Source of the DNA: Verrucomicrobiales bacterium
Lineage (GTDB): Bacteria; Verrucomicrobiota; Verrucomicrobiia; Verrucomicrobiales; DEV007
Assembly (NCBI GenBank): GCA_024641425.1
Contig: JAHEDC010000004.1
Location: 1-42,339 of the forward strand
Direction of reading: 5' to 3'
Length of the DNA stretch: 42,339 nucleotides
This document shows, one piece after another, positions 5,982-27,939 of this stretch. The notes below the pieces were generated by a model, which was not told where the DNA came from, ran no database searches, and was given only the letters and a program-made list of their open reading frames with translations. A program made the translations under genes and the position numbers. Each line of letters begins with the position of its first letter. Within the stretch, counting starts at the first letter, position 1.

Positions 5982-6953
5982 ATGAAACTCCCCGTTACCG
6001 CCGCCATGCTCGCCACTGTCTCGTCCCTCGCCGCCGCCGAACCGGAAGTCCTCCGCCTCGGGATCATCGGTCTCGACACCTCGCACGTCACCGCCTTTAC
6101 CGAGACGATCAACAACCCCGACGCGAAAGGGCACGTGCCGGGAGCCAAGGTCGTGGCGGCCTTCAAGGGCGGGAGTCCGGACATCGAATCGAGCATCTCG
6201 CGGGTCGACGAATACACCGCGAACCTGGTCGAAAAACACGGCGTCGAGATCTGCGCGACCATCGAGGAACTTTGCGGCAAGGTCGACGCCGTCATGATCG
6301 AGAGTGTCGATGGCCGCCCGCATCTGGAGCAGGCCCGTCCGGTCATCGCCGCGAAATTGCCGCTCTACATCGACAAGCCGGTCGGCGGCACCCTCCGGGA
6401 CGCCATCGAGATCTTCCGCCTCGCGAAGGAAGCCGGCGTGCCCGTCTTTTCCTCGTCCTCGCTGCGTTTCGCGAAAGCGACCCAGGACGTCCGGAACGGC
6501 TCCATCGGCGAAGTCCGGCACGCCGAGACCTCCAGTCCTGCCCACCTTGAGCCCCACCACCCGGATCTCTACTGGTACGGCGTCCACGGCTGCGAGTCGC
6601 TCTTCACCGTCATGGGCCGGGGCTGCGAGTCGGTCACCCGCGGCACGACCGCCGACGGCAAGATCGAGGTCACCGGCATCTGGAAAGGCGGACGCACCGG
6701 CATTTTCCGCGAAAGCGATGGTTACTCCGGAACCGCGCGCGGGGAGAAGGGCGAGGCCGCTGTCGGCTCGTTCGACGGCTACGAGCCGCTCGTCGCCGAG
6801 ATCGTGAAATTCTTCCAGACGAAGCAGGCCCCGGTCGACGCCGGGGAAACGATCGAGCTCTTCGCCTTCATGGAGGCCGCCGACGAAAGCAAGCGGCGCG
6901 GCGGCGAATCCGTGACCCTCGCGGAAGTGATGGAGAAGGCGAACGACCGCTAG
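5982..6953 (+). CDS. Exported Gfo/Idh/MocA-like oxidoreductase
   Basis: A 323-residue protein with a short signal peptide (MKLPVTAAMLATVSSLAAAE), so it is probably periplasmic. The Rossmann part starts right after it, LRLGIIGLDTSH (residues 25-35), where the usual GxGxxG is altered to GIIGLDTSH, a variant seen in PVC members of the family. The conserved (E/D)KP motif is present as DKPVGG (131-136, Lys132), and the WYGVHGCE segment in the C-terminal domain carries the likely substrate-side histidine. It is shorter than the usual 340-400 residues. Family members oxidise or reduce sugars and cyclitols with a tightly bound NAD(P), and exported forms keep the cofactor bound. It follows the CxxCH gene by 99 bases and may share its transcript. 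The substrate is unknown. Confidence 0.88.
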   Translation: MKLPVTAAMLATVSSLAAAEPEVLRLGIIGLDTSHVTAFTETINNPDAKGHVPGAKVVAAFKGGSPDIESSISRVDEYTANLVEKHGVEICATIEELCGKVDAVMIESVDGRPHLEQARPVIAAKLPLYIDKPVGGTLRDAIEIFRLAKEAGVPVFSSSSLRFAKATQDVRNGSIGEVRHAETSSPAHLEPHHPDLYWYGVHGCESLFTVMGRGCESVTRGTTADGKIEVTGIWKGGRTGIFRESDGYSGTARGEKGEAAVGSFDGYEPLVAEIVKFFQTKQAPVDAGETIELFAFMEAADESKRRGGESVTLAEVMEKANDR

Positions 6954-7258: not shown

Positions 7259-9322
7259 CTATGGCCGTCTGAGGCGGTAATAACGCATGTTGGGGATTGG
7301 GCCGCCCAGCGGCACGGTATAGACGAACTCGGTGGCGGTGGTGGTGATACCGCCCGTAACATCCGTCCACGCTGTGAGGGCGCTGCTTGTCTGGAGGACA
7401 GCGGTCGTGTCCGCGATCGGCCAACTGAGGCGCAGGGCGAGGGTCGGACCGCTGCCGACAAGATTCGCGTTGAGGACGATCGCGTTTCCGCCGATGAAAG
7501 AGGCCGCGTCGCGGGGGTCGGTACCATTCCGGTACTCGTCGCGGTTGTTCGAGCCGTCGCCATCCTCGTCGCCGTCGGGATCGTAGGCGGCGAAGGCTTC
7601 CTCCCACTGATCCGGCAGGCCGTCGCCGTCAAGATCGACCAGCGCGCCGGTCGTGAGCGGGCTCTCCGCGGCGAAGGTGTAGGCGGCGCTGCGGGTCGGC
7701 GTCCGCTCGACGCCGAATTGGGCGAAGGCCTGCACCGTGGCGGGAGCGCCGATCGAGGGGGGCACGTTCGGATCGTAGGAATTCCACGACGCGCCGGGAG
7801 CGAGGCGGAACCGGATGACGCCCCCGGGCTGGGTCGACGCGAAGGTGACAAGAAATGCCTCGCCGGCCGCGAGTGGCGGATAGTTGCCCGCCGGGGGTGT
7901 GATGAGGACGTCGCCGACATTCGGGCCCGCCGCCGATGTCAGGGTGCGGACGGAGACGTTCGACCGGAACTGGTTGACGAGCGCGTGTCTGGCACCGGGC
8001 ACCGGGTTGTAGTTGACGATGGCCCCGTTGCCGAGACCCGCGGGACTTTGGGTGAGGGAAGTGACGGACCAGCTGGAGCCGCCGCCACTGGCAGCGGTGG
8101 TCCAGTCGTGGACATGGCCGAAGTAGACCGGGGTCGCGTCGGGATTCACATAGGGTTCGCCGCCGGTCACGAAGATGATGTTGGAAACACTCGCCGCGGG
8201 CGAGGGGGGCGGGAAGGTGCCTTGACTGACCGCCGTGAGGGTGGCGCTGCTCGACGAGACATCCCAGCGCTGCCAGGCATTCGCACTGTTCCGGCTCAAG
8301 AGTCCATGCGTCCCGACAGGCGCGAGCATCTCGTAGCCGTTGCCCGGAAGGTTGGATCGCAAGGCCAGCTCCGACCCGTTGAAATCGTAGGTTGCGGCGG
8401 TCGTGTCGGTAAAAAGCACTGCGAGGCGCGCTCCGGCGGAGGAAGGGACGGTGACGATCAGTCGCACGGGCTTCGGGAAGGTCAGGGTCGCGAGCGTCCC
8501 CCAGCCGAAATTTCCCGGCGGCGATTCCGTGACCTTGACCGTGCGGGCGATCGTTTCTCCCGGGGTATAGAGAAGCACCTGGGCGAGGAGCGTGGCATCG
8601 TAGTTCCCGTAAGTCATCCGCATTGCGGGCACGGCAAGGAATCCCGCCAGCGTCCGCGCGTTCGTGAGTCCGCCCGTCCCGACCGTGGCGACGAGGAACT
8701 GGGAGCCGCGAATCGCGGCGACGAGCGGAGGTGTGAGCGCCTTCTGCCGGAAGGTCCAGATCCGCGCCGTTTCCGAGGTGCCGAACTCGCTCCAGAGACT
8801 GGTCGGCGTCGTCTGCGTGTTCGCCGTCACATTCCAATAGTAGTGCGCGCCGCTCCCGCCGACATCGCCGACGCCGAGGAGATCGCTGGCCCCGTCGCCA
8901 TCGGCGTGGAAGGCCGCGATCGACTGTGTCGCGACGAGGGCGGGGAAAACGTGGCGGATTCCCAGCGGGGTCGCCGGATTGCCCGGTGTGAAGACACTGG
9001 CCCGGTTCTCGGTGGGTGCGGTCACCGCGACCTGGCTGGCGGCGACGTTGTTGAACATTCCCACGGCCAGCCCGGTCGGCGAACCGAAACCGGTCGGCTC
9101 GGGCGCGGTCCAGTCGAAGCCGCCGTCGACGCGCTGCAGCCCGATGGTGATCGTGCCGTCCGACTTGTCGACGAGGGCGACGTCGATCCGCCCGTCGGGA
9201 CTGGCGTTGCCGAAGTCGCCGTGCGAATAGATCCAGCGAGGCGTCTCGTAGGTGAAGGGATCCTGCTGGGCGGCGAGCGGCGCGGCGACGAGGGACAGGA
9301 TGAGGGAAATCCGGGCTTTCAT
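7259..9322 (-). CDS. Secreted FG-GAP-like protein with Ca-binding (TSP3-like) segment
   Basis: A 687-residue secreted protein and last gene of a three-gene operon. The signal peptide is MKARISLILSLVAAPLAA. Residues about 20-470 look like a beta-propeller of the FG-GAP/VCBS kind (HGDFGNASPDGRIDVALVDK and similar D-x-D-G blades). A Ser/Ala-rich all-beta stretch follows, then acidic calcium-binding repeats (LVDLDGDGLPDQWEE, DPDGDEDGDGSNNRDEYRNG; about 575-620) as in thrombospondin type-3 or dockerin-like loops. The C-terminus (LALRLSWPIAD ... RYYRLRRP) is a short beta domain that recurs at the ends of verrucomicrobial exported proteins, also seen here at the end of the 33.6 kb protein. The ATG overlaps the stop of the gene before it (ATGA, 4 bases), which suggests translational coupling. 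Such propellers usually bind ligands; no enzyme motif was seen and the function is unknown. Confidence 0.9.
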   Translation of the reverse strand: MKARISLILSLVAAPLAAQQDPFTYETPRWIYSHGDFGNASPDGRIDVALVDKSDGTITIGLQRVDGGFDWTAPEPTGFGSPTGLAVGMFNNVAASQVAVTAPTENRASVFTPGNPATPLGIRHVFPALVATQSIAAFHADGDGASDLLGVGDVGGSGAHYYWNVTANTQTTPTSLWSEFGTSETARIWTFRQKALTPPLVAAIRGSQFLVATVGTGGLTNARTLAGFLAVPAMRMTYGNYDATLLAQVLLYTPGETIARTVKVTESPPGNFGWGTLATLTFPKPVRLIVTVPSSAGARLAVLFTDTTAATYDFNGSELALRSNLPGNGYEMLAPVGTHGLLSRNSANAWQRWDVSSSSATLTAVSQGTFPPPSPAASVSNIIFVTGGEPYVNPDATPVYFGHVHDWTTAASGGGSSWSVTSLTQSPAGLGNGAIVNYNPVPGARHALVNQFRSNVSVRTLTSAAGPNVGDVLITPPAGNYPPLAAGEAFLVTFASTQPGGVIRFRLAPGASWNSYDPNVPPSIGAPATVQAFAQFGVERTPTRSAAYTFAAESPLTTGALVDLDGDGLPDQWEEAFAAYDPDGDEDGDGSNNRDEYRNGTDPRDAASFIGGNAIVLNANLVGSGPTLALRLSWPIADTTAVLQTSSALTAWTDVTGGITTTATEFVYTVPLGGPIPNMRYYRLRRP

Positions 9323-12300
9323 GGGGCTTCCGGGAAGGTCAGGGTTCCCGCGTTGATGATCGACTCCGGTTCGAAGCCGGCGTTGAAATGCACCAGATAG
9401 TATTGGTAGGTGCCGCCCGCGGCGACGGGCGAATTATCGAAAAGGCAGAGGTCCGCGAAGAGCGATTGCGGATTCGGCTCGAGCAGGGCGACGTTGATGA
9501 AAGGATCGATGAAGAGGGCCAGGTCCGGATTCGCGGGTGGAGCCGGATCCGCAACCCAGGAGATCGAATTGATCATCGACGAGGCCTGGATGATGTCGGT
9601 ATCGGGGGTCGGTATCGACACCCCCTCGACAAGCCGCGCGGTCTGGCGCCGGTAAAGGACGATCGGAAAGAGCGACTGCGTCGTGTCGATGGCCCAGATG
9701 TCGCCGTAGAGCTTCAGCTTCGGGGCAAGATAAGCATGAAGAAGTTTCTGATCGGGAGGATTGTTCGTGAAACCAATGGCATTCGACACGCCGAACACGC
9801 CGATGATGGTGGTTTCATTGATCTGCGTTCCACGCACGTCCCAGTTGGACGAAGGGATGGTCGATCTGGGCTGCAGCGAGAGGAGCGGGATGCGTCCGAC
9901 GCGGATGGCGACCGGATATTGATCGGCGTCGATCTGGACGAGGCGCGTCGGCGAGATCGAAAAGTGGGCCTGTTGGACCCGGAACGCCTTGATGAGAGGA
10001 TTCCAGGCTACGAGCTGCGGGATCGGTTTCGCCGGCCAGGCCACGGAATCGCCGGTGAGCGGGGCGCTCCAGGTGAACAACTGCGGCGCGCTCCAGTCGC
10101 CGAGCTTGCCGCCGAGCCCGATGGCACGCACCGAGACCTTGTATTCGACTCCGGCCTTGACCGGAACCGTCGAATCCAGGGTGGTGGGAACAGACGGATC
10201 CTGCGCGGGCATGGAGAGCCCCATCAGCGACACGGTGTAATCCGCGGGCTGCGTCTGGGGCATCCCGGGCTTTTCGTTGAAGAGCTGGCTGCCAAGACGG
10301 GTGGCGGTGGTCATGCCGGCCGGAGTGGACGGCGGGGGCGGATCGACGAGCAATTCGAGGCGTTCGACGCCGGGACTCGGGCAGAGCGCGCGCACGAGCA
10401 TCGTCGGCGCGGTGATGTTGCCCCCCGATCCGGCCGGGTCCATGGTCGGGACCGGCAGTTCCGGCATGGCGGTCACCTTCTCCCCCAACAGGGCCAGTGG
10501 ACTCGGGTTGCCGTTTTCGTCGAAGACCTGGCCGTAATAGCCGATGCGGCCGCCGGGAGGTGGAATCATGGCGTCCGATACCATCACCGCCTGGACGATC
10601 GAGTCGTCCCAGGTTTCGACGTCTTTGCGGAGCAGGGACAAAGGGCCGTTCTCGATGCGCCGGTAGAGCCGGTATTCCTTGGATCCGACGGGGAGGACGA
10701 GCACCACTTTGATCGGCGAGATTTCGCCGGTCTCCTGGGGACGGGCATCGTGCGGACAGGTCCCGACATCGGGAGAACCGGCCGGATCGACGATCTCCCA
10801 TGCCCGCCACGTACTCGCGAGGGAAATCGGCCCGGGGTAGGTGAAGAAGAACTCGGTCGTGTTGGAGGGCAGCCGTGCGGTGTCCCAGTTCGAAAAAGAA
10901 CCGATGACGAAACGGCGTTGGATGAGGAGCGAGCGCGAGGCCGGCGTCGTCGTGGTGCCGAATGCCGCGCGGTAGGTGGTGGGTGTGGAAACCTCCGGGG
11001 TGACCGGCTTCACGGTCTGACTTCCGCTGCCAGTGATGAAGTAAGGGGTCCAATATTCCTCGTTCGGGGTGCCGGGAGGCGCCATCGCGAGGGTGGGCGC
11101 GCTGAGGGCGCGGGCTTTGACGAGGTAGCGGAAGCCGGTGATCACATTCTCCGCGGAGACGCCATAGCTGACGAAATGGCTGATGCGCCCCGAGGCATTG
11201 CCGCCCACCACCGTGACGGCGAATCCGGACGGGCTAGCTTTGGCCAGAAGCTCCGTCCAGACCAGATCGCCGCTTCCGTAAAACAGGAACGGCGAGATAT
11301 TGCTGAAATCGGAGGGATTCGAGAGATCGACGAGCCCGAAGACCACCCACTCGACGTCCTTCCATTCGCCGGTCTCGGTGCCACGCCGCGCCTCGAGCCG
11401 GAAGACGACCCGGTCGGGCGGCACACCGACGGAACCGAGGGAATCGGGGTGCGCGTCCTCCTCGTCGAACTTGATCCCGACGCGGGGACAGTCGCTCGCG
11501 GTGAATCCCGAGGGCGCGGCGGGGCCGACCCGGTCGCGCAGCGTGCCGAACACCGCCGGACTCGGTGAGGAGATGTCGTAACCCAGCGGTCCGAGGTGGG
11601 CGGCGCGGACGCAATAGAAGTAGGTCTGGCCATAATCATTCGCCAGCGGGACGAGCGCGTCGTCGTCGAAGCTGAGGGTCGCCCCGGGTTCCGGCGGATG
11701 GGCCACCGCACCCAGGTAGACGAGGTTGTCATGTTCGTCGGGATGGGCGCTGCGATCGAGGGAAAGGGGTGGGGGCACCGAATTCCTGACGCGGTCGCGG
11801 TAGATCAGGTAATGGGTCGTCGGCACGATCTGGTTCGGCGAAGTGTTCGGTTTCCACACGACCCGCAGGCGCTGACCGCCGTTCTTCATGATGTTATCGA
11901 CCCGCAGGACATCGGGGACGGTCGGCGGCACCGTGAAGGCGGCGACGCCCGCACCGCGTGCGGAGACCGGGCCGAAACGGCCTAGCAGATCCACCGGAGC
12001 AACGACGTATTCGAAGCCCTGCCCTTCGGTGTAGGGGGTGCCGACGATGGTGGGCGGATTGCCCTCCACCTTGTAGCGGTGGTTGTCATCGACGACGAAA
12101 AAGGTCTCGCGGTCGGCGGCGAAATCGTTGACAGCGGGGCCGCTCTCCACCGAGCCCGCCGCGCGGAAGACTTTGGTGGCGGTGGCGGGGTTCCGGGTCA
12201 GTCGGCGCACTTGCGCGGGAGCGGAGGATTCCGCCGCGACAAGGGCGGCTCCGTTCAACCCTCCGGGCGGGGTGTATCCCGTCGCGAGCCGCCAGACGTG

Positions 12301-13134
12301 GAATCCGCGGGTGAGCAGAAGCTGGCGCCGTAGGTCCTCCGGGATCGACCAGCGGAGGGCAACACCGAGATCGAGCTGGTCCGACGCCCCCGCCACCGGA
12401 AACGGCACTTCGTTTGGCACCGGGAGGGCGCCGGGGAAATCCGGCGGCACCTGCACCGGCGGGCCCGGCGGCACCAACGCCTCGACGACACCCGCCGTGA
12501 GGGTGACGCGGCCGACCACGGCACCTTCCGCGCCCGTGGCGCGATCCCTCTCGCGCAATTCGATGAGCACCGCCTCGCCGTTGAGCACCCCGAGCGGCCC
12601 GCCCCACGCGGTGGCGCTGACGAAGCGGTAGAGCGGGTGGGCGTTCCCGAGCTGGCGGAGCGCCGCCGCGGCCTCGGGCTGCTGCGACGCCCGCACCCCG
12701 AGCATCGAAAGACGATCCTCCAGCTTGGCCGGCAGCGGCTCCGGGTTCGTCGCGTCTTTCCACTGCTGGTGCAAGGCGGCCGCGATGTCCGCGCATTCCG
12801 CGAGGTCTTCGCCAAGCGAGACCGCGCGTGCCATCCAGGGCTTGATCGCGTTCGGATCGGTCATCGGCGTCATGACCCCCTGCAGCTGGAAGGTTCCGCC
12901 GACGACCGGCTTCAGGTAGACGGCGACATCGTGGGTCGCGAGCCAGCCTTCGGCGGTCACATTCCAGACCACGTATCCCCAGGGCTGGTCGCCGATGCTG
13001 GCCGTGGTGCCGGCGGCGGTGAGGTGGGGTGGAAGCTCCAGTGTGACCGGCGGATCGACCGCGCGCAACAGGGGCGTGCCCGCCATGGCAAGAGCGGCGA
13101 CGAGGGCAAGGGGGAATGGTGGATTGGATTTCAC
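9319..13134 (-). CDS. Giant secreted protein with fibronectin type III-like domains
   Basis: Middle gene of the three-gene operon. An ATG at 13176 would overlap the preceding gene by 19 bases and add 14 polar residues. I prefer GTG at 13134, which starts a clean signal peptide (MKSNPPFPLALVAALAMAG), has GGGAG about 8 bases upstream and lies 23 bases past the preceding stop. The mature 1246 or so residues are almost wholly beta. The N-terminal module begins ITLELPP-like (VDPPVTLELPPHL) with an Asn/Trp-rich strand (YVVWNVTAEGWLATHDVAVY). At least three FN3-like units follow, for example PPTVPDVLRVDNI ... LRVVWKPN ... THYLIYRDR near 430-490. There is no transmembrane helix, LPXTG or PEP-CTERM sorting signal and no catalytic motif. 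A scaffold or adhesin role is only a guess. Its stop overlaps the next gene's start by 4 bases. Confidence 0.88.
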   Translation of the reverse strand: MKSNPPFPLALVAALAMAGTPLLRAVDPPVTLELPPHLTAAGTTASIGDQPWGYVVWNVTAEGWLATHDVAVYLKPVVGGTFQLQGVMTPMTDPNAIKPWMARAVSLGEDLAECADIAAALHQQWKDATNPEPLPAKLEDRLSMLGVRASQQPEAAAALRQLGNAHPLYRFVSATAWGGPLGVLNGEAVLIELRERDRATGAEGAVVGRVTLTAGVVEALVPPGPPVQVPPDFPGALPVPNEVPFPVAGASDQLDLGVALRWSIPEDLRRQLLLTRGFHVWRLATGYTPPGGLNGAALVAAESSAPAQVRRLTRNPATATKVFRAAGSVESGPAVNDFAADRETFFVVDDNHRYKVEGNPPTIVGTPYTEGQGFEYVVAPVDLLGRFGPVSARGAGVAAFTVPPTVPDVLRVDNIMKNGGQRLRVVWKPNTSPNQIVPTTHYLIYRDRVRNSVPPPLSLDRSAHPDEHDNLVYLGAVAHPPEPGATLSFDDDALVPLANDYGQTYFYCVRAAHLGPLGYDISSPSPAVFGTLRDRVGPAAPSGFTASDCPRVGIKFDEEDAHPDSLGSVGVPPDRVVFRLEARRGTETGEWKDVEWVVFGLVDLSNPSDFSNISPFLFYGSGDLVWTELLAKASPSGFAVTVVGGNASGRISHFVSYGVSAENVITGFRYLVKARALSAPTLAMAPPGTPNEEYWTPYFITGSGSQTVKPVTPEVSTPTTYRAAFGTTTTPASRSLLIQRRFVIGSFSNWDTARLPSNTTEFFFTYPGPISLASTWRAWEIVDPAGSPDVGTCPHDARPQETGEISPIKVVLVLPVGSKEYRLYRRIENGPLSLLRKDVETWDDSIVQAVMVSDAMIPPPGGRIGYYGQVFDENGNPSPLALLGEKVTAMPELPVPTMDPAGSGGNITAPTMLVRALCPSPGVERLELLVDPPPPSTPAGMTTATRLGSQLFNEKPGMPQTQPADYTVSLMGLSMPAQDPSVPTTLDSTVPVKAGVEYKVSVRAIGLGGKLGDWSAPQLFTWSAPLTGDSVAWPAKPIPQLVAWNPLIKAFRVQQAHFSISPTRLVQIDADQYPVAIRVGRIPLLSLQPRSTIPSSNWDVRGTQINETTIIGVFGVSNAIGFTNNPPDQKLLHAYLAPKLKLYGDIWAIDTTQSLFPIVLYRRQTARLVEGVSIPTPDTDIIQASSMINSISWVADPAPPANPDLALFIDPFINVALLEPNPQSLFADLCLFDNSPVAAGGTYQYYLVHFNAGFEPESIINAGTLTFPEAP

Positions 13135-13157
13135 GGAGAGGCTCCCAGGTTTCCCGG

Positions 13158-16100
13158 TTAGTAATCGAGTTTCCATTTCAGCGGTGTGGCCGTGACCCTG
13201 AGACGGATGGTTTTGCTGAAGGTGTAGCTGAACCAGCCGACGCCGACCGTGCCCTTGACCTTGGCCGCCGAGGTGCCGTTGATGCTGGTGATCTCGGGGC
13301 TCCCTCCGAAGATGGTTCCGCTTCCGGCGAGGACGGTGGCGAATTTCCCCGACACATCGACGAGGCAGAGCAGTTCGCCGCTCACGCCTTGGAGGTTTTT
13401 GACTCCGGCGGTCTCAAGCCCCGCGTTGTTCTTGAAATAGAAGTATCCCTGGCCGCCGTGGACGCGCAGATCAAGGACGCACGATGGCGGGACGCCGATG
13501 AGCGGCATCAGGCTCATGCCGCCTTCGGCGTAGACCATCGCGCCGGTTACGGGCAGCGAGGTGGAGTAGCCGGGCAATTGTTTCGCGAGCAGATCCCCGA
13601 TGTCATCGTCGGCGTATTCGATGACCTTGATGTCGCAGGTGCTGCCAACGAAAACACCGGCGGAAACGCTCATGGAGGCGATCTTTCCGGTGCCACGCCC
13701 GTAGAGGTAACCGTTGTTGCCGCCGAAGCCGAAGCCGAGTTTCAGGTCGTTGACCTTGACTTCGCTGAAGTCGAACGAACCGAGAATCGCGAAATCCCCC
13801 GACATCCCGACCGGCGATCCGTTCCCGTCGAGGGCCACTTTCCCCCCGACGCTGATGCCGGTCTTCTTGCCGACCCAGTCGAGCTCGGCCGAAGCACCCA
13901 TCCCGACCTCGGCTTCCGCGCCGCCATCGACGAGACAGGCGCTGGCAGGCGTGGACGAGTCGAGGTCCCGGAGGAGAAACCAGGCGTCGAACTTCATGTC
14001 GTCCGGAACTTTCAGCCGGGCCTGGCCGTCGAGCCGGAGTTCGTGCAGGGCGTCGCCGTTGATGCGGGCGTATCCGCGCAACCGGGCCGCCCCCACGTTC
14101 CCGCCGAGGGAACCGAGCGCCGGGGAAAACGCCGCTCCGGCATTGTTCAGGCTCGCGGCGACCAGTTGCTCCGCCATGCGCAGGGTGTCGTCCACCGCCT
14201 GGCGGGCCAGCGTCTGCGGGTCGCCGGCGTATTGGCGGAGCAGCTGTGTCGCGGTTCCGGCAAAGGTGCTGCCCGCAAGGCGATCCACCAGCGCGCCGGT
14301 GAGGTCGGCCTGGAAGTTCGCGAGGTTGCCCGTCGCGTAGAGCCCGTTGGTCGCATTCGGATTGGCGGGTGCCCACTTCGCCTTCAGGCTGTCGACCGCC
14401 TTCTGCACGGTCGCGGTCGGCCCAGCGGCGATCAAGGCGGCATCCAGGGCGGTATTCAGATCCCCGGACCCCTGCAGGGAGACCTCGACCGCCTGCAGTT
14501 GGGCGATCACCTGGGCGAAGAGCGCCTGCAACCCGCCCAGCGCATTCGTTTCCGGAGCCCCGAGGGGGTCGGAGGCGCCGATCTTGGCGCCGATGGCGGA
14601 GGCGAGTTGCTGCAGGTTCGCCACCGATGAGACGAGCCCCTGCGCGTTCTGCATCCCTACCCGGGCCTTGGTCACCTCGGCGAGGAAGTCACGCCGCCAG
14701 CGCCCGTTGATCCCCGAGGTCGCGGAGCTGAACTGGGCCGTGACGTCGTTGCTGAGCCCGGGTGTCACGCCTCCGCCGACCAGCTCATCGAGTTTCGCCG
14801 CGCGGTCGGCCTCGGATGCCAGCTCGCTGAAGAACGTCCCTCCCCCGCGGCTTGCGGCCATCGCGGCCAATCCCGGCTTCAGCAGTTCCTGCAGGTGGTC
14901 CGCGAGCAAGCCGTCGAGACCCCGCACGCTGTCGAGCGCGCCATCGATCGCCGGCTGCAAGCCCGGCACCGCCAGCAGGCCGCTATCCTGCAAAAGCGAT
15001 CCCACGTTGATCTGCGGAATCATCGATCCGAGCCCCAACGCCCCACTCCCGTCGAAAGTCAGCTCCACGTCGGTGGGCGTCATCGATTTCACCGCCTGGG
15101 TCAGCTTGAAAAGGAGGAGGTCGTCGGTGACCGGTGTGCGCGAGGTGAAGACCTGGTTTGCTCCGAGGTGCACCGGGAAGTCGAACGCGATGAGGTTCTG
15201 CCATTTCCCCGTCGCGATGGGATCGTGGGCGGGATCCGTGCGGTAAATATCAAGGGGGACACCGCCCGGTACGCCGACGTGGCCGGGATCGTAGGGCGCG
15301 GAAGTGAGCGAAGCCCAAGGCTTGCGGACGAATTGCGCGGGCGGGTTCGGGGTGGTGTTGATCGAATTCGTGGACAGGACTACCGGCATGTCCTCGAAAA
15401 AGGGGAGCTGCATCAGCCCGCCGACCGTGAGCGTGCCGGTCTGAGTGCTCATGTGCTTGTTCACCGAAATGCCGGTGACAGGGATGACGTTCCAGTCCGG
15501 TTTGCCCTGCGGTCCATTGACAGTGAGGAGCGCTCCGGGCTGGAATCGGGAGACCGGACCGTTGCCCTTTGCCTTGGCATCGGATTCGACAACGAGGTTT
15601 CCATTGAGCACGCTGATGTTCCCGGCCAGCGGCTGGTCGGTCAGGCCGGTGAGGGTGGCGAGGGCGACGACCTTGATGAACGCGTCGGCCGGGCCGGGCG
15701 GCGGGCAGTCTTTCGGCTGCGGGAACTCCAGCGCGAGGGGGGTGAATTTCAGGCCCCAGTAACCTCCCTGCGGTCCTCCGAGCGTCTTGTCGCCCTGCGG
15801 GGTGGCGATGGCCGCTTCCTGCAATTGTCCCTGACCCCCGAATTTCAGCCCCTTGAAGGCGAGGTTGAAGTCGGCCGGGGCCGGAACGCTGAGCGAGCCG
15901 TTGACGCCGGAGGCCACATTGACGCCGTCGAGGAAGGCGAGGTTGAGGGCAGTGAGGTTGAAGTCCGCTCCCAGGGCGGTGAACTGGATGTTCGGGGCAC
16001 CCTCCGCGGTGAGATGGCGCCCGGTGACCCCGGCCGGACGCAGGACGTATTTCGCCTCCGGGGCCAGCGGATAGGGCGGCACCGGAACTCCGGCGAGTCG

Positions 16101-18338
16101 GCTCAACGCAGAGTAGCTCCCCGGTGTGCAGCGCAGATTGAATCCGGAATAGTCGGCCAGTCCATTGTAATAGGCCGTTGTCCCCGGTCGCTCCGACAAG
16201 GTCGCGTTGGACGGCGCGCTGAAGCCGGTGAGGAAAAGCGCGGAGGGTTTCTCGTGCTCGGCCAGACCGGCCAGCTGATCCGCACGCGCGAACACGCCGG
16301 CGGTGAGGACGCGGCAAGCGGCAAAGCCGGGCTGGATCTGGTGGGCGTAGCGCTGGATCGCACCCTCCTTGTAGGCGCCCCATTCTACGGTGAGGGGGGC
16401 GGTACTCGTGGCGGTGGCCTGCACCGTGCCCTCGGCGCGCAATCCGCCATCGGGAGTAAACCGCCACTCGCCGCTCGCTGGCAGGAAGTGCATTCCCTCG
16501 ACCGGCGGCGGAACGGTGCCCGGCGTCCCTGCGCATTCTGTGGGGACACCTTGCAGGTATCCGCTGCCCGCAATGGTCGCTCCGGCGAGCTTGCTCGTCG
16601 CAAGGTCGATGGCGTCGTTGGCGAAGCGGATCTGGCTGCCCGCGGTCTGGTTCCAGGTGATGGGCAGCAGCGGATAATGCATCCAGACCGTCGAGGAGGG
16701 GCCGCCGAATTTCAGCGGATCGAGCGTGACGGTCACGGCCTGCATCGATGCCGCTCCGCCCGGGCGCACCCCGATGGTCACGCTGCCGACAGCCTGTTTC
16801 GCCGCGATGAAATAGAACTCGTTCGAGGCCGGATTCGCGGCTCCGGGGCGCCCGTTGAGGATCTGGTTCAGGAGAATGGCCAACTGCGGTTGGCGGTGGT
16901 AGACCAGATCCTCGGTCGACGAGAACGTGAATTGTCCGGTGCCGGGATCCCAACTGATGCTGTTCGTGGCGAAGCGCACCGGAATCCGGTCCGCGATCGG
17001 ATACAGGACCGGGGAACTCAGGTCCGTGGTGAAACTCGATCGGGTCAGGGTCGCCGCAAGCACGGGAGCGAGCGATTGGCTTAGGCCGACATTTCCCGCG
17101 TTCGCCCTCACCAGCGTGTTTTTTCCCAACGGTGTGAGGGCGACGCCGAAGCCGGCGGGAAGATAGGCCCGGACGGTGCCCCGCGCGCCGGTGGAGCCAA
17201 GGGTGAGCGCGCTTCGCGCGTAGGAGACGCCCGCGACGTTTCCGAGGTCCGGCCCCGCTCCGAAATAATTCACGGTCACCGTCTGCGTCACCGCGACATC
17301 GCCGCCCGGCTGCACGTGGCCGGTCACCGTCCCGCCAAAGCGATGGTTCGGAAAGCCCGGAATCGTCCCGCCTCCCCCGCCAAGCGCGATCTGCACCTGG
17401 GCGATTGTGCCCGGAATCGTCGGCGCCGAAGCCGTCGCCGCGATGGCATTCTGGTCCGGCGAATAGTTCGCCGAAAACAGGCCGAATTTCATGATCCCGG
17501 TAAGGACGGGCAAAGGCGGGCAGCTCTCGGCAGGGGTGATGTTCGGCCAGTCGATCCCGTCCGCGTCCCAGGCCCCGATGGTGGCGATGTCCGCGTCGGC
17601 GAGTGCCCGTCCCCAGAATCCGACGCTCCCGACGTCGAGGCGTGCCGTCTCGTCGTTGTCATCGGAAAAGAGGGGAACGCGCGAACTGAGGGAATAGCGG
17701 CCGTTCAGGGGGGCGGTCGTCCCATTGCCCGCCGTCTGCGGGGTCACCGTGCCGTTGATGTAGGCGCGCAGGATCTGGGTGTTCGTGCCCGCGTTATACT
17801 CCGCCCGGAAGGCGAGACGGTACCAGGTGTTGAGCCCAAGCGGATCCGTCGCGGGGCCCGGTGCGTTCGCACCGATAAAGTAGAGCTGCCGGTTGCTATT
17901 GAGGAAGATTTCGGCGTCGTCGTCATTGGTCGGCGTGCTTTGCATGAGCGCCGTCCAGCCGGTGATGCTCGGGAAGCGCACGTCCATGACCAGGGTCCAG
18001 GAATGGGTCCCGGTCGCGCCGAGGGGACCGTTCGGCCCCACCGAGTTCAGAATGAGCAGGCGCTCGGTCTGCTTCAAGCCGCCGAAGGGTACCGTCGAAC
18101 TAGCCAGATCCAGCCAGGTGCGGGGCGGATTCGATGGGAGGAACTGCGAGCCCGGTAGCCCGGAAATGGAAAAACCCTGCGTTGCCAGGGACGCCTGGCA
18201 CGACCATCGCGAGGCCAACGAATCGTCCAGCTGCCACAGCCCCTTCACCGAATTCTGCTCGAAAACGCCCGCGCGTACCGAAACGGTGAGCATGGGAGCG
18301 ATCAGAACGGCGGCAAAGATGGGATTTCGCGTATTCAT
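13158..18338 (-). CDS. Giant secreted protein with N-terminal LamG (ConA-like) domain
   Basis: First gene of the operon, about 1726 residues. A TTG at 18344 is in frame, but the ATG at 18338 gives a normal signal peptide (MNTRNPIFAAVLIAPMLTVS) and is preferred. Residues about 25-265 form a LamG/concanavalin A-like domain (GLWQLDDSL, SWTLVMDVRFP, WYRLAFRAEYN, LDVGSVGFWGRALADADIA), a fold that binds sugars or proteins. About 280-1090 is a long beta-rich region I do not recognise, containing a low-complexity Gly/Pro hinge. About 1095-1420 is strikingly helical (LQPAIDGALDSVRGLDGLL; AQLQAVEVSLQGS). The last 300 residues are again beta, with amphipathic alternation (GISVGGKVALDGNG; DLKLGFGFGGNNGYLYGRG) like a lipid-transfer or barrel-type sheet. 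No enzyme motif and no anchor was seen. The order signal-LamG-beta-helical-beta is not one I can name. Confidence 0.88.
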   Translation of the reverse strand: MNTRNPIFAAVLIAPMLTVSVRAGVFEQNSVKGLWQLDDSLASRWSCQASLATQGFSISGLPGSQFLPSNPPRTWLDLASSTVPFGGLKQTERLLILNSVGPNGPLGATGTHSWTLVMDVRFPSITGWTALMQSTPTNDDDAEIFLNSNRQLYFIGANAPGPATDPLGLNTWYRLAFRAEYNAGTNTQILRAYINGTVTPQTAGNGTTAPLNGRYSLSSRVPLFSDDNDETARLDVGSVGFWGRALADADIATIGAWDADGIDWPNITPAESCPPLPVLTGIMKFGLFSANYSPDQNAIAATASAPTIPGTIAQVQIALGGGGGTIPGFPNHRFGGTVTGHVQPGGDVAVTQTVTVNYFGAGPDLGNVAGVSYARSALTLGSTGARGTVRAYLPAGFGVALTPLGKNTLVRANAGNVGLSQSLAPVLAATLTRSSFTTDLSSPVLYPIADRIPVRFATNSISWDPGTGQFTFSSTEDLVYHRQPQLAILLNQILNGRPGAANPASNEFYFIAAKQAVGSVTIGVRPGGAASMQAVTVTLDPLKFGGPSSTVWMHYPLLPITWNQTAGSQIRFANDAIDLATSKLAGATIAGSGYLQGVPTECAGTPGTVPPPVEGMHFLPASGEWRFTPDGGLRAEGTVQATATSTAPLTVEWGAYKEGAIQRYAHQIQPGFAACRVLTAGVFARADQLAGLAEHEKPSALFLTGFSAPSNATLSERPGTTAYYNGLADYSGFNLRCTPGSYSALSRLAGVPVPPYPLAPEAKYVLRPAGVTGRHLTAEGAPNIQFTALGADFNLTALNLAFLDGVNVASGVNGSLSVPAPADFNLAFKGLKFGGQGQLQEAAIATPQGDKTLGGPQGGYWGLKFTPLALEFPQPKDCPPPGPADAFIKVVALATLTGLTDQPLAGNISVLNGNLVVESDAKAKGNGPVSRFQPGALLTVNGPQGKPDWNVIPVTGISVNKHMSTQTGTLTVGGLMQLPFFEDMPVVLSTNSINTTPNPPAQFVRKPWASLTSAPYDPGHVGVPGGVPLDIYRTDPAHDPIATGKWQNLIAFDFPVHLGANQVFTSRTPVTDDLLLFKLTQAVKSMTPTDVELTFDGSGALGLGSMIPQINVGSLLQDSGLLAVPGLQPAIDGALDSVRGLDGLLADHLQELLKPGLAAMAASRGGGTFFSELASEADRAAKLDELVGGGVTPGLSNDVTAQFSSATSGINGRWRRDFLAEVTKARVGMQNAQGLVSSVANLQQLASAIGAKIGASDPLGAPETNALGGLQALFAQVIAQLQAVEVSLQGSGDLNTALDAALIAAGPTATVQKAVDSLKAKWAPANPNATNGLYATGNLANFQADLTGALVDRLAGSTFAGTATQLLRQYAGDPQTLARQAVDDTLRMAEQLVAASLNNAGAAFSPALGSLGGNVGAARLRGYARINGDALHELRLDGQARLKVPDDMKFDAWFLLRDLDSSTPASACLVDGGAEAEVGMGASAELDWVGKKTGISVGGKVALDGNGSPVGMSGDFAILGSFDFSEVKVNDLKLGFGFGGNNGYLYGRGTGKIASMSVSAGVFVGSTCDIKVIEYADDDIGDLLAKQLPGYSTSLPVTGAMVYAEGGMSLMPLIGVPPSCVLDLRVHGGQGYFYFKNNAGLETAGVKNLQGVSGELLCLVDVSGKFATVLAGSGTIFGGSPEITSINGTSAAKVKGTVGVGWFSYTFSKTIRLRVTATPLKWKLDY

Positions 18339-18803: not shown

Positions 18804-19706
18804 CTAGAACCGAAGCTTGATCCCGAAGTTCACGAACCAGGTGTCGTCGAGATCCTCGGAGAAGTCCGCGCTCCCCGCGCCATCGAGTTCGAGCTCCTGC
18901 GCGAATTGCCAACCACCATCGACAGAACCCCAGACCTTGCCGAAGAGGCGGCGTTCCACGCCGAGGCCCGCGCGGACGCTCGAAAAGTTCAGATCCGCGT
19001 TCTTGTCGCCATCCACGCCGCTGATGTTCCAGCCGCCGCCGCTCGGGTAAGCTCGTGCGGCGAGGAGCCAGTCTCGCGTGGGAGCATAGGCGAGTTCGAC
19101 TCTGGGAACGGTCAGGGCCAGCGACCAATGCGGGTCGGGTTTCCAGATGAACCCGGCTGCCGGAAGTAGTCTCTCGTTGCCGAGGTCCCGGGAATAATAG
19201 CCTCCGACGGCCACCGAGAGGGTTTCCGTCCATTGGTAGGAACCCAGCGCCAGGGCGGAGAAGGTGAAGTCATCGCCGCTGATGGAATCGAAATCGGAAT
19301 AGAGGCCTGGCGAGGCACGGAGCCAGAAATTCCATCGGTCGCTATGGTCGATCCAGAGATTGAGGGGAATCTCGAGGCGATGCAGATCGAGTGAATTGGA
19401 AAAGGGCAGGTCGCGTCCCACGAAATCGAGGGTGTTCAGCCGGTAGCGCACGCCTGCCGTCAGTTTCCATTCGTCCTGAAGCGAAAGGGGAGCGAGCAAT
19501 TCCGCATCGAATTGGCCTTGGGAAAGGTTGCCCTCGCCTTCATCGAAATTCGAGTCCCCGATGACCGAGTATCCAAGGTTGCCGATGGTGTAGTTGGGAA
19601 TAAACGATGCCTCGACCTTTTCCTCTTGCTGCGCGAGGAGAGTCGTGTGGAGGAGGGCAAGCAAAGCAAGTCCCCAGGCGGGTGAGAAGGGTGGTGAGGT
19701 CGGCAT
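18804..19706 (-). CDS. Outer-membrane beta-barrel protein, DUF6268-like
   Basis: A 300-residue exported protein: signal peptide MPTSPPFSPAWGLALLALLH ending TTLLAQ, then about 12 amphipathic strands alternating with acidic turns (LTAGVRYRLNTLDF, NFWLRASPGLYSDFD, LSVAVGGYYSRDLG, SSVRAGLGVERRLF). It ends WFVNFGIKLRF with the C-terminal phenylalanine typical of BAM-assembled outer-membrane proteins. Length and strand pattern fit the DUF6268 family found in Verrucomicrobia and Bacteroidota, whose function is not known. It is transcribed alone, away from the acyltransferase gene at 19904. Confidence 0.8.
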   Translation of the reverse strand: MPTSPPFSPAWGLALLALLHTTLLAQQEEKVEASFIPNYTIGNLGYSVIGDSNFDEGEGNLSQGQFDAELLAPLSLQDEWKLTAGVRYRLNTLDFVGRDLPFSNSLDLHRLEIPLNLWIDHSDRWNFWLRASPGLYSDFDSISGDDFTFSALALGSYQWTETLSVAVGGYYSRDLGNERLLPAAGFIWKPDPHWSLALTVPRVELAYAPTRDWLLAARAYPSGGGWNISGVDGDKNADLNFSSVRAGLGVERRLFGKVWGSVDGGWQFAQELELDGAGSADFSEDLDDTWFVNFGIKLRF

Positions 19707-25499: not shown

Positions 25500-27939
25500 C
25501 AGGGCAGCTATCGCCTCCGGCGCCGAAGCCCGTCGAACCATCGGTGGCACCGATGAGGTTGTATCCCCTGGAATCGAAAGTGCCCCGGACGTCCGAGGCC
25601 AGATTTCCGGCGTGGAGGTTGCCCGCGACGATGCTGTTGTTGACGCTGGATTGGGAATTGGATATGTAGCGGACCGCCCGTCCAATTCCGGAAGGGCTGT
25701 TGTTGGCCGCTTCGCCTGATCCCCCGAAGGAAAAATTTCCGGCGACGGTGCAGAAAAGGAGCACGATCGGGCCGGCACTACCGATCGCGCCGCCTTCCCC
25801 ATTGGGTCCCGCGCCTCCCCCGTGGCCACCGGCGCCGGCGCCAAACGCCGCGTTGTCCAGGAAGGTGCAGTTGGTCATGGTCAAGACTCCGGAGGAACTC
25901 ACATAGATCGCCCCGCCCGACCCTGTCGCTCCCTGGCCGCCAAAGGTGAGGGTTCCGGAATTGTTTCCGCCGCCGCCTCCGAAGGCGCGGTGGCCGTTTA
26001 AGGAGCAGCGTATCAGTTCCGCCAAGGAACCACCGCTCAGCGAAATCGCGCCCCCCCGCGCCACGCCGCCGTTCCCGCCGGGGAAGAGCCCGAGATCACC
26101 GCTGACCTTGTTGTTGACGAAGACGCAGTCGGTGATCTTGAGAAGACTAAAATTCTCGCAAAGGACACCTCCGCCTTCCTTCAAGGAGGCGCTGCCGCTC
26201 TGGTGGGCTCCATCCTGGATCGTCAGGCCGCTCAGGCTACCGGTTAGGTTCAGGCCCGGCACCTTGGAGCATCTAAAAACGCGCCCGTTAGTGCCTCCGC
26301 TGATGGCCAGGGAACGCGCCCCGGACCGCGGATATCGGTGCCGGCCAACACCTCAAGGGGGCCGAGATTACGGTCAAGCGCCAGCGTTCCGGTCAGACCA
26401 GGCGCGAATCTGATATACAAAGAAGCGGGAAGGGCAATCCTGTCTGGCCCGTGGCTTGCCTCCAGGATCAGATTCACCCGGGCAACCGCCTCGCGGAGGT
26501 TATAATCGTTGATGCCCGCCAAGCCATCGTCGTGATCATGGAGGCTATTGACGACGAGGCGAAAACCCACCAGAGGCTCGACCGCCTCACAGGCGCCGAT
26601 GTCGCTGCCGTCGCCGCCCGGTGGGTTAGGGTAAAACGGCAGGTCGATCGGGCGCGGGCTGCCGCGCTGGTCGGTGGTCAGCCCCAAGCTGTGGCCCCGA
26701 TCGACGGCGGGGCTGGTCGAGAGCAGCGCGATGGTGGCGGTGGGTCCGCCGTGGTCTTGCGGTCCAAGCGGGACGAGGTTCGCCGGGATATTGGTCAGGT
26801 CACCCGGTCCAGTCAGGAAACCGCCGGCGTCGCCGTCGCAGAGGTTGAAGCCGTTCGAGATCATATTGGAATTGGAGTCTTGAATCGCAACGGAGGGCCC
26901 GCCACTGGGAATGGTGTCCCCGAGTGTGAATGAGTCGCCACTTGCCGAGATATTTGAGTCATTTGGGGGTGCGTTCGGATTCACTGGAGGCATGTACTTT
27001 TTTTTCTTGGAAAAAGTGCAGCCGAGAACCGAGTGGGCGCGTCCGCTGCCCGAGGAGGCGATTCTCAAACAGGAACCGGTAACCGAGTTCCGCCAGAACG
27101 TGGAATTGGAGACGTTGAGGGAAACCGCAACTGCTTCGACGGCGCTTCCCCTGAAAGTGGCTTCGTTATTCTGGAAAAGACAACCCCGGATCGTCGTAGC
27201 ACCATCTGCAGCGTTGCTTTGAAGAATCTCCACGGCTCCTCCAACAGAAGCCCTGTTTTCGGAAAAGGTGGAGTTTTCGATGTGAGCCCCGGAAAGGCCG
27301 ACGCTATCGAGACCATAGACATTCCGAGCGCTGGCACTGATTGCTCCTCCATTCGAACCCGTGTTGCCAGTGAAGGTGCTGCAAAAGATGCGAAGGTCGG
27401 CCGTCTGATCGACACCAAAGCCATCAAATGCTTCGCTTGCGATCGCCCCACCCGATCCTTGCGCGAGGTTACCACTGAAGGTGCAATGATCGACCTCCAG
27501 AACTCCCGGGTAGTTGAGAATAACCCCCATTTCCAGCCGAGTTGTTGAGGAACAGGCAGTTGGTGATCGTAACGGAACTGTCGGTGCAATAGACGCCTGC
27601 TCCATTCGCGATAGTCAGGTTCGAAAGATGCACCGTGAGAGTGCTCGATTCATTGTGGATTCTGAAAATTCGGAAATTCTCCACCCCCTCCGCGTTGCTG
27701 CGCTGGATGCGTGGCGCAGCAGGACCACCTGGCCCCTCGATGTCCAAGCTCTTGTCTATCACGAGCGAGCCTAGGGTCAGGTTGATCGTCCCGGCGACGG
27801 CGAAACGGATGGTGTCCCCATGCGCGGCTGCGGCGATGGTCTCGGTGAGCGACCCCGTCCCGGTTTCAGCGACGGTGGTGACCGTTCGCACTGCTCCGGC
27901 TCCCTCGCGCGGTTGGGCGGGAAGCTGCCAGGACCGCAT
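25500..27939 (-). pseudogene. Right-handed beta-helix / choice-of-anchor Q protein gene, frameshifted and 3'-truncated
   Basis: Three consecutive reading frames together encode one repeat protein. Part 1 (27939 to about 27526): VRTVTTVAETGTGSLTETI then TITNCLFLNNSAGNG. Part 2 (to about 26322): VILNYPGVLEVDHCTFSGNL, repeated N-C-x-F-x-x-N rungs, a complete anchor-type end (DHGGPTATIALLSTSPAVDR ... TDQRGSPRPIDLP ... GSDIGACEA), then a second LREAVARVN start. Part 3: SLAISGGTNGRVFRCSKVPG, more Gly-rich rungs, ending GYNLIGATDGSTGFGAGGD. Part 1 joins part 2 by deleting one G from G5 (27524-27528), and part 2 joins part 3 by adding one G to G4 (26319-26322). The second module lacks its anchor end. 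No signal peptide is visible. Intact relatives are secreted adhesin-like or polysaccharide-binding proteins. Confidence 0.8.
26998..27005 (-). repeat. A8 homopolymer inside the beta-helix gene
   Basis: On the coding strand a run of eight A (encoding KKKK after CTFS) interrupts an otherwise regular rung sequence. Such tracts are prone to slippage. It is in frame as it stands. Confidence 0.6.

What the first reader, a model, noticed from the sequence alone, without database searches (positions are those of the whole stretch)
7259..18338. Three-gene operon of giant secreted proteins with no recognisable function
Seen: three consecutive minus-strand genes (about 1726, 1271 and 687 residues), each with its own signal peptide, separated by 23 bases and by a 4-base overlap, with a hairpin after the last stop. 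Domains differ by gene: LamG plus unknown beta, helical and beta regions; FN3-like repeats; an FG-GAP-like propeller with calcium-binding repeats. No enzyme motif, membrane helix or anchor signal was seen. Inference: the three may form one large extracellular or periplasmic assembly, for example a matrix or particle made from unlike components. Over 11 kb in three coupled genes with no housekeeping function argues for a dedicated system.
Basis: partly seen in the sequence, partly recalled or inferred. Interest (0 to 1): 0.75.

Follow-up and report, generated by a model that had tools for sequence, protein, structure and literature searches.

The report
Conserved three-gene giant envelope-protein cassette
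Three neighbouring genes for very large exported proteins turn out to be a fixed, previously unnamed cassette carried by many Verrucomicrobiota, probably building one surface structure anchored in the outer membrane, whose job is still unknown.

Summary
The triplet (A 1726 aa, B 1271/1285 aa, C 687 aa) is a co-inherited cassette. In 80 named GTDB loci found through A alone, every locus with sequence left beside A has B and/or C next to it: 55 A-B-C, 13 A-B cut by the contig end, 3 rotated with B/C upstream. Distance matrices correlate at r = 0.92-0.95. It is patchy across Verrucomicrobiota including Kiritimatiellales, with several paralogous cassettes per genome. A and B match no Pfam, NCBIfam or PDB family convincingly. 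LamG is not a hallmark: only the window's A has it; 72 relatives share another N-domain. A carries conserved cysteine pairs, two lost pairwise in the window, so it folds outside the cytoplasm. Its last 312 residues form a 16-strand amphipathic sheet ending in an outer-membrane beta-signal-like tail (69% versus 7% of neighbouring ORFs), contrary to 'no anchor signal'. Covariation supports all adjacent strand pairs but not barrel closure; fold hits are weak, split between ApoB/lipovitellin and porins. B is a predicted FN3-like chain; C a propeller-CHB_HEX-TSP3 protein. Best reading: one envelope complex, A anchoring, B/C as binding subunits. Function is inferred. The terminator hairpin is not supported.

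The parts
13158..18338 (-). Gene A, 1726 aa, member of a family not described in the libraries searched
   Evidence: ORF; no Pfam/NCBIfam match above cut-off full-length and no PDB match; relatives in Verrucomicrobiota
18270..18338 (-). Signal peptide of A (MNTRNPIFAAVLIAPMLTVSVRA)
   Evidence: read from the translation
17583..18011 (-). LamG (Laminin_G_3) domain of A, in place of the N-domain shared by 72 relatives
   Evidence: Pfam above cut-off; N-domain clustering
15048..17492 (-). Conserved all-beta core of A, with the retained cysteines 602 and 878
   Evidence: family alignment; model pLDDT about 90 over residues 544-1097; cysteine columns
14106..15005 (-). Helical, coiled-coil-like region of A
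   Evidence: predicted structure, low to moderate confidence; generic coiled-coil and amphipathic-helix hits
13161..14096 (-). C-terminal 16-strand amphipathic antiparallel sheet of A, ending LKWKLDY; retained cysteines 1468, 1568, 1620, 1658
   Evidence: model; strand covariation; face polarity; C-terminal motif; cysteines
9319..13176 (-). Gene B, 1285 aa (1271 aa if started at GTG 13134), FN3-like chain
   Evidence: ORF; model and Foldseek; family
12619..12855 (-). Helical insert in the first beta domain of B
   Evidence: model residues 68-146
7259..9322 (-). Gene C, 687 aa, short form of a family usually about 1150 aa: FG-GAP-like region, CHB_HEX-like domain, TSP3/EF-hand-like repeats, conserved C-terminal domain
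7493..7636 (-). TSP3/EF-hand-like calcium-binding repeats of C
   Evidence: invariant D/G/E columns; TSP3_bac above cut-off in relatives

Best explanation
A, B and C are the three dedicated subunits of one cell-envelope complex found in Verrucomicrobiota. All three are exported by Sec (shown at the level of signal peptides). A folds with conserved disulfides (strongly indicated), and its C-terminal 16-strand amphipathic sheet with a beta-signal-like tail is inserted by the BAM pathway into, or closely associated with, the outer membrane (inferred). Its helical region and large beta domains carry an N-terminal domain that differs between lineages, LamG in this cassette and another shared domain in most relatives (shown). 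B (FN3-like chain) and C (propeller plus calcium-binding repeats) are encoded in the same presumed operon and dock on A as large soluble binding subunits (inferred). The likely role is recognition or attachment: binding glycans, particles or other cells at the surface (inferred, weakly supported). Paralogous cassettes in one genome would give different specificities (inferred).
For: Order and adjacency: 55 A-B-C, 13 A-B cut by the contig end, 3 rotated B/C-A, none separated (L092 recounted by hand as A-B-C). Tight coupling: B-C gap modally -4 bases. Shared history: r = 0.946, 0.917, 0.928, no permutation of 1000 reaching them. Several cassettes per genome, e.g. G056 and G050. Extracytoplasmic folding: cysteine pairs 55-292, 1077-1115 and 1158-1161 present or lost together (p 3e-10 to 2e-16), and the window has lost two of them as pairs; B shows similar pairs. 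Sheet: 16 strands, all 15 adjacent pairs covary. Tail: [hydrophobic]x[hydrophobic] end in 69% of 121 distinct A C-termini versus 7% of other ORFs, 0% of B and 2% of C; aromatic end 61% versus 7%, close to the published beta-signal (PMC10945584). Porin-like Foldseek hits Omp32 and OmpT, probability 0.92-0.96.
Against: Strands 1 and 16 show no covariation (0.69, against at least 2.0 for every adjacent pair), so a closed barrel is not supported; the test is uncalibrated on known barrels. TM-scores to porins are low (0.30-0.39 of target) and their E-values weak (0.0045-0.07), while the best E-values go to ApoB100 and lipovitellin. The full eight-residue beta-signal consensus is met by only 4% of A tails, and some clades end in D/E. 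Mean amphipathicity of the sheet is close to that of ordinary beta-sandwich strands in the same protein. Related sequences inflate counts of shared features, and shared phylogeny inflates mirror-tree correlations. No complex was modelled and nothing shows binding activity.
Confidence: 0.5

Rival explanations
1. One reading: the three form a fully secreted matrix or particle with no membrane anchor; A's terminal sheet is a soluble or self-assembling beta domain.
For: No closure covariation in the sheet; B and C have no detected anchor; the domains are typical of extracellular matrix proteins.
Against: Beta-signal-like tail specific to A among the three families; porin-like hits for the sheet.
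Confidence: 0.2
2. A is a lipid-binding protein working like the animal large lipid transfer proteins (ApoB, vitellogenin): amphipathic helices and an open amphipathic sheet hold lipid, and B and C are partners of a lipid- or hydrophobic-cargo-carrying assembly.
For: ApoB100 (E 2e-6) and lipovitellin (6e-4) are the top PDB fold hits; beta - helical - sheet order; no barrel-closure covariation.
Against: TM-scores 0.05-0.10 with rmsd above 30 A, so the hits may be pattern matches; helices are coiled-coil-like rather than a superhelix; no Pfam lipoprotein domain above cut-off.
Confidence: 0.1
3. A secreted weapon or toxin delivery system, such as a three-part toxin complex or a polymorphic toxin.
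For: Three large exported proteins with a propeller; a giant extracellular PVC protein has been read as a predation factor (PMC12057145).
Against: No toxin, Rhs or enzyme domain found; C-terminal regions are conserved, not variable; no recurrent immunity-like neighbour.
Confidence: 0.06
4. Three unrelated exported proteins co-transcribed for regulatory convenience, acting separately.
For: Domains are unlike each other; no contact was predicted or tested.
Against: Near-invariant adjacency across classes and paralogues and matched divergence; rotated loci still keep the genes together.
Confidence: 0.1

Closest known systems
Outer-membrane surface proteins with coiled coil plus C-terminal barrel (e.g. 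Deinococcus SlpA, PDB 8ae1/7zgx)
   Same: Large exported protein with a helical region followed by a C-terminal amphipathic beta sheet; weak fold hits
   Different: No detected SLH domain or sequence relation; barrel closure unsupported; comes with two fixed giant partners
Autotransporters (type Va)
   Same: N-terminal domains and a C-terminal beta region with aromatic tail
   Different: 16 rather than 12 strands, no autotransporter Pfam hit, two fixed partner genes
BtuB-BtuG type barrel plus propeller complexes
   Same: Outer-membrane-like sheet partnered by a propeller protein; BtuB appears among weak fold hits
   Different: No TonB plug, C has no lipobox, no sequence relation
ApoB/vitellogenin large lipid transfer proteins
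   Same: Best fold E-values; beta - helical - amphipathic sheet order
   Different: TM-scores of 0.05-0.10, no sequence relation, animal family
Giant genes of the PVC superphylum and Omnitrophota (cited in PMC12057145)
   Same: Large proteins, often exported, of uncharacterised role in related bacteria
   Different: Those are single genes for proteins of up to 85,800 aa; here three moderately giant genes in a fixed order

Membership tests
Outer-membrane beta-barrel proteins | Signal peptide and C-terminal beta-signal | tested here: met
   Signal peptide; tail [hyd]x[hyd] in 69%, aromatic end 61%; full eight-residue consensus only 4%, so met in relaxed form only
Outer-membrane beta-barrel proteins | Even number of antiparallel strands closed into a barrel (first pairs with last) | tested here: inconclusive
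   16 strands and all adjacent pairs supported; pair 1-16 scores 0.69, rank 101 of 105; test not calibrated on known barrels
Autotransporter (type Va) | Autotransporter beta-domain | tested here: not met
   No Pfam hit
Large lipid transfer proteins | Vitellogenin/LLTP sequence domain | tested here: not met
   No Pfam hit
Large lipid transfer proteins | Shared overall fold | tested here: inconclusive
   E 2e-6 to ApoB100 but TM-score 0.05-0.10
Tc toxin complexes | TcA plus Rhs-repeat TcB/TcC components | tested here: not met
   No Rhs/YD, SpvB or Tc domain in A, B or C
Polymorphic toxins | Variable C-terminal toxin domain with adjacent immunity gene | tested here: not met
   C-termini conserved; no recurrent small neighbour
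SusCD / TonB-dependent systems | TonB plug and lipoprotein partner | tested here: not met
   No plug domain; no lipobox in B or C

The most novel reading that the evidence does not exclude
A bacterial three-protein assembly in which A works like ApoB/vitellogenin, using amphipathic helices and a large open amphipathic sheet to hold lipid or another hydrophobic cargo outside the inner membrane, with B and C as obligate partners.
Probability: 0.08. Interest if true: 0.9.

Novelty: new variant of a known kind. Interest (0 to 1): 0.6.

Why it matters
It turns an anonymous stretch of hypothetical genes into a defined, phylum-wide three-component system with clear boundaries, conserved residues and testable parts. 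Verrucomicrobiota are common in water, soil and sediment, and how they touch polymers and other cells is poorly known; a surface machine carried in several copies per genome is a candidate. If A's sheet is a membrane anchor it adds a new outer-membrane protein family; if it is an open lipid-holding sheet it would be a bacterial counterpart of a fold known from animals.

Tried and rejected
Single-protein genome-contig scan with A found nothing; the full alignment was too diverse. LamG-FN3-FG-GAP as the definition of the system: rejected, LamG is unique to the window among those tested. Viral, phage or plasmid origin: no relatives found. Terminator hairpin: not supported. Toxin readings: no domain, no variable end. 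Barrel closure by covariation: no signal, alternative closures not convincing. Whole-protein reduced-alphabet covariation was too noisy to read. Kinase/sigma neighbours as part of the system: not clearly enriched in named loci (5 against 3.4 expected) and absent from the window's cassette. Literature searches found no description; most subscription journals and preprints are not held.

Full report
The three genes are there as described. A runs 18338-13158, B 13134 or 13176-9319 and C 9322-7259, all on the minus strand. Each starts with a readable Sec signal peptide. C starts inside the stop of B (ATGA). The hairpin after C is no better than shuffled sequence and has no T tract.

The window lies in a Verrucomicrobiota genome (G000, contig C118), judged from its gene content: DUF7133, PSD1/PSCyt, DUF1501, sulfatases, and from its relatives. 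Searches with A found matches in 16 of 57 genomes of its family and order (some through the LamG region only) and with B in 12. C matches 42 genomes, but many only through the common TSP3-like stretch and C-terminal domain. On the fetched contigs the three lie together, in the same order except for a few rotated cases.

A profile-guided scan of one genome per GTDB species then gave 116 loci encoding A relatives, 80 kept; those titled with a lineage are all Verrucomicrobiota in the broad sense, including Kiritimatiellales and Pontiellaceae. This scan used A only, so B and C were free to be absent. Counting by script, 54 loci have A-B-C, 13 have A-B and then the contig ends, 9 end at A, 3 have B and/or C immediately upstream (rotated order), and one (L092) was miscounted because its B and C frames were extended upstream by the ORF caller; it is A-B-C. 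No locus with room beside A lacks a partner. B-C spacing is most often the same 4-base overlap as in the window. Distances in A, B and C correlate at 0.92-0.95 with no permutation of 1000 reaching this; part of this is shared species history. Profile searches found A in 67 of 387 genomes of the order, 37 of 384 of the class and 21 of 289 of the phylum, so it is patchy. Some genomes hold several diverged cassettes.

A and B match no Pfam or NCBIfam family above cut-off at full length and no PDB sequence by single-protein search for A; profile hits to the PDB are generic coiled coils for A and marginal for B. The LamG domain in the window's A is real but not typical: 72 of the relatives tested share a different N-domain, four Kiritimatiellales another, and the window alone has LamG. 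C is usually about 1150 residues; the window has the short form. In relatives C shows CHB_HEX_C_1 and TSP3_bac above cut-off.

The predicted structure of A residues 544-1726 (mean pLDDT 78.6, pTM 0.59, 59 sequences) shows a confident beta region, a helical region of lower confidence and a final run of about 16 long strands. Covariation from 112 non-redundant sequences (effective number 73) supports every one of the 15 adjacent strand pairs, including 15-16, but not the 1-16 pair that would close a barrel. Foldseek against the PDB ranks ApoB100 and lipovitellin first by E-value, with TM-scores of 0.05-0.10, then a run of outer-membrane barrels (Omp32, LptD, OmpT, FimD, BtuB) with probabilities up to 0.96 but low TM-scores; viral predicted structures again include porin-like hits. 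The alternation of hydrophobic and polar faces is strong, but similar to that of ordinary beta strands in the same protein, so it does not decide.

The C-terminus of A helps. Over 121 distinct complete ends, position -1 is F, Y or L in 78%, -3 hydrophobic in 74% and -5 aromatic in 72%. The pattern hydrophobic-x-hydrophobic at the end occurs in 69% of A, 0% of B, 2% of C and 7% of 659 other ORFs in the same loci. The published beta-signal recognised by BAM ends in this way (PMC10945584), though its full eight-residue form is met by only 4%. Related sequences are not independent, so the percentages overstate the number of independent cases.

Cysteines give evidence for the compartment. Ten columns of A are cysteine in 87-97% of 116 sequences. 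Three pairs are present or absent together (55-292: 102 with both, 11 with neither, 3 with one; 1077-1115: 110 and 6; 1158-1161: 104 and 12; model numbering, add 543 for the protein). The window itself has lost 55-292 and 1158-1161, each as a pair. B shows the same behaviour at 413-531 and 596-655. These look like disulfides, hence folding outside the cytoplasm.

B's model (mean pLDDT 70.2) is a chain of FN3-like domains with a helical bundle inserted in the first beta domain; its structural neighbours are cytokine receptors, contactins and other FN3/Ig chains, which indicates fold type only.

Putting this together, I read the cassette as one envelope complex: A the anchor, B and C the large soluble partners, with recognition or attachment as the likely role. 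Shown: the cassette, its conservation, export signals, paired cysteines, the 16-strand sheet as predicted and supported by covariation, and the tail. Inferred: membrane insertion, complex formation, function. The main alternatives within the evidence are a fully secreted assembly, and a sheet that stays open and holds lipid.

In a subset of loci an ECF-like sigma factor and a Ser/Thr kinase lie next to the cassette. Kinases are common in these genomes (20-56 each in six genomes), the named loci show no clear overall enrichment, and the window's cassette has none, so this is recorded only as a side observation.

Noticed in passing
L063, L067, L073, L113, L125/L060, L130, L158: An ECF-like sigma factor and a Ser/Thr kinase (with WD40-type repeats in those scanned) lie next to the ABC cassette, suggesting regulation in some lineages; in the named loci the kinases are all within about 1.6 kb.
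   Followed up: partly
window 13161-18338 (A) and 9319-13176 (B): The window's A and B have lost several cysteine pairs that most relatives keep, both partners of each pair, and A has a replaced N-domain: a strongly diverged branch of the family.
   Followed up: partly
window 5982-6953 (+): The gene downstream of and convergent to C is probably a GFO_IDH_MocA-type oxidoreductase (Pfam E 4e-7), not the 418-aa minus-strand ORF that overlaps it.
   Followed up: no
window 18804-19706 (-): DUF6268 protein upstream of A on the same strand, about 460 bases away.
   Followed up: no
window 26250-27605 (-): 451-aa protein with a Chlamydia PMP-type repeat match (Pfam PF02415, E 9e-9).
   Followed up: no
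G000, whole genome: 93 LamG (PF13385) matches in one genome, many in ORFs of 1000-3100 aa: a very large LamG repertoire.
   Followed up: no
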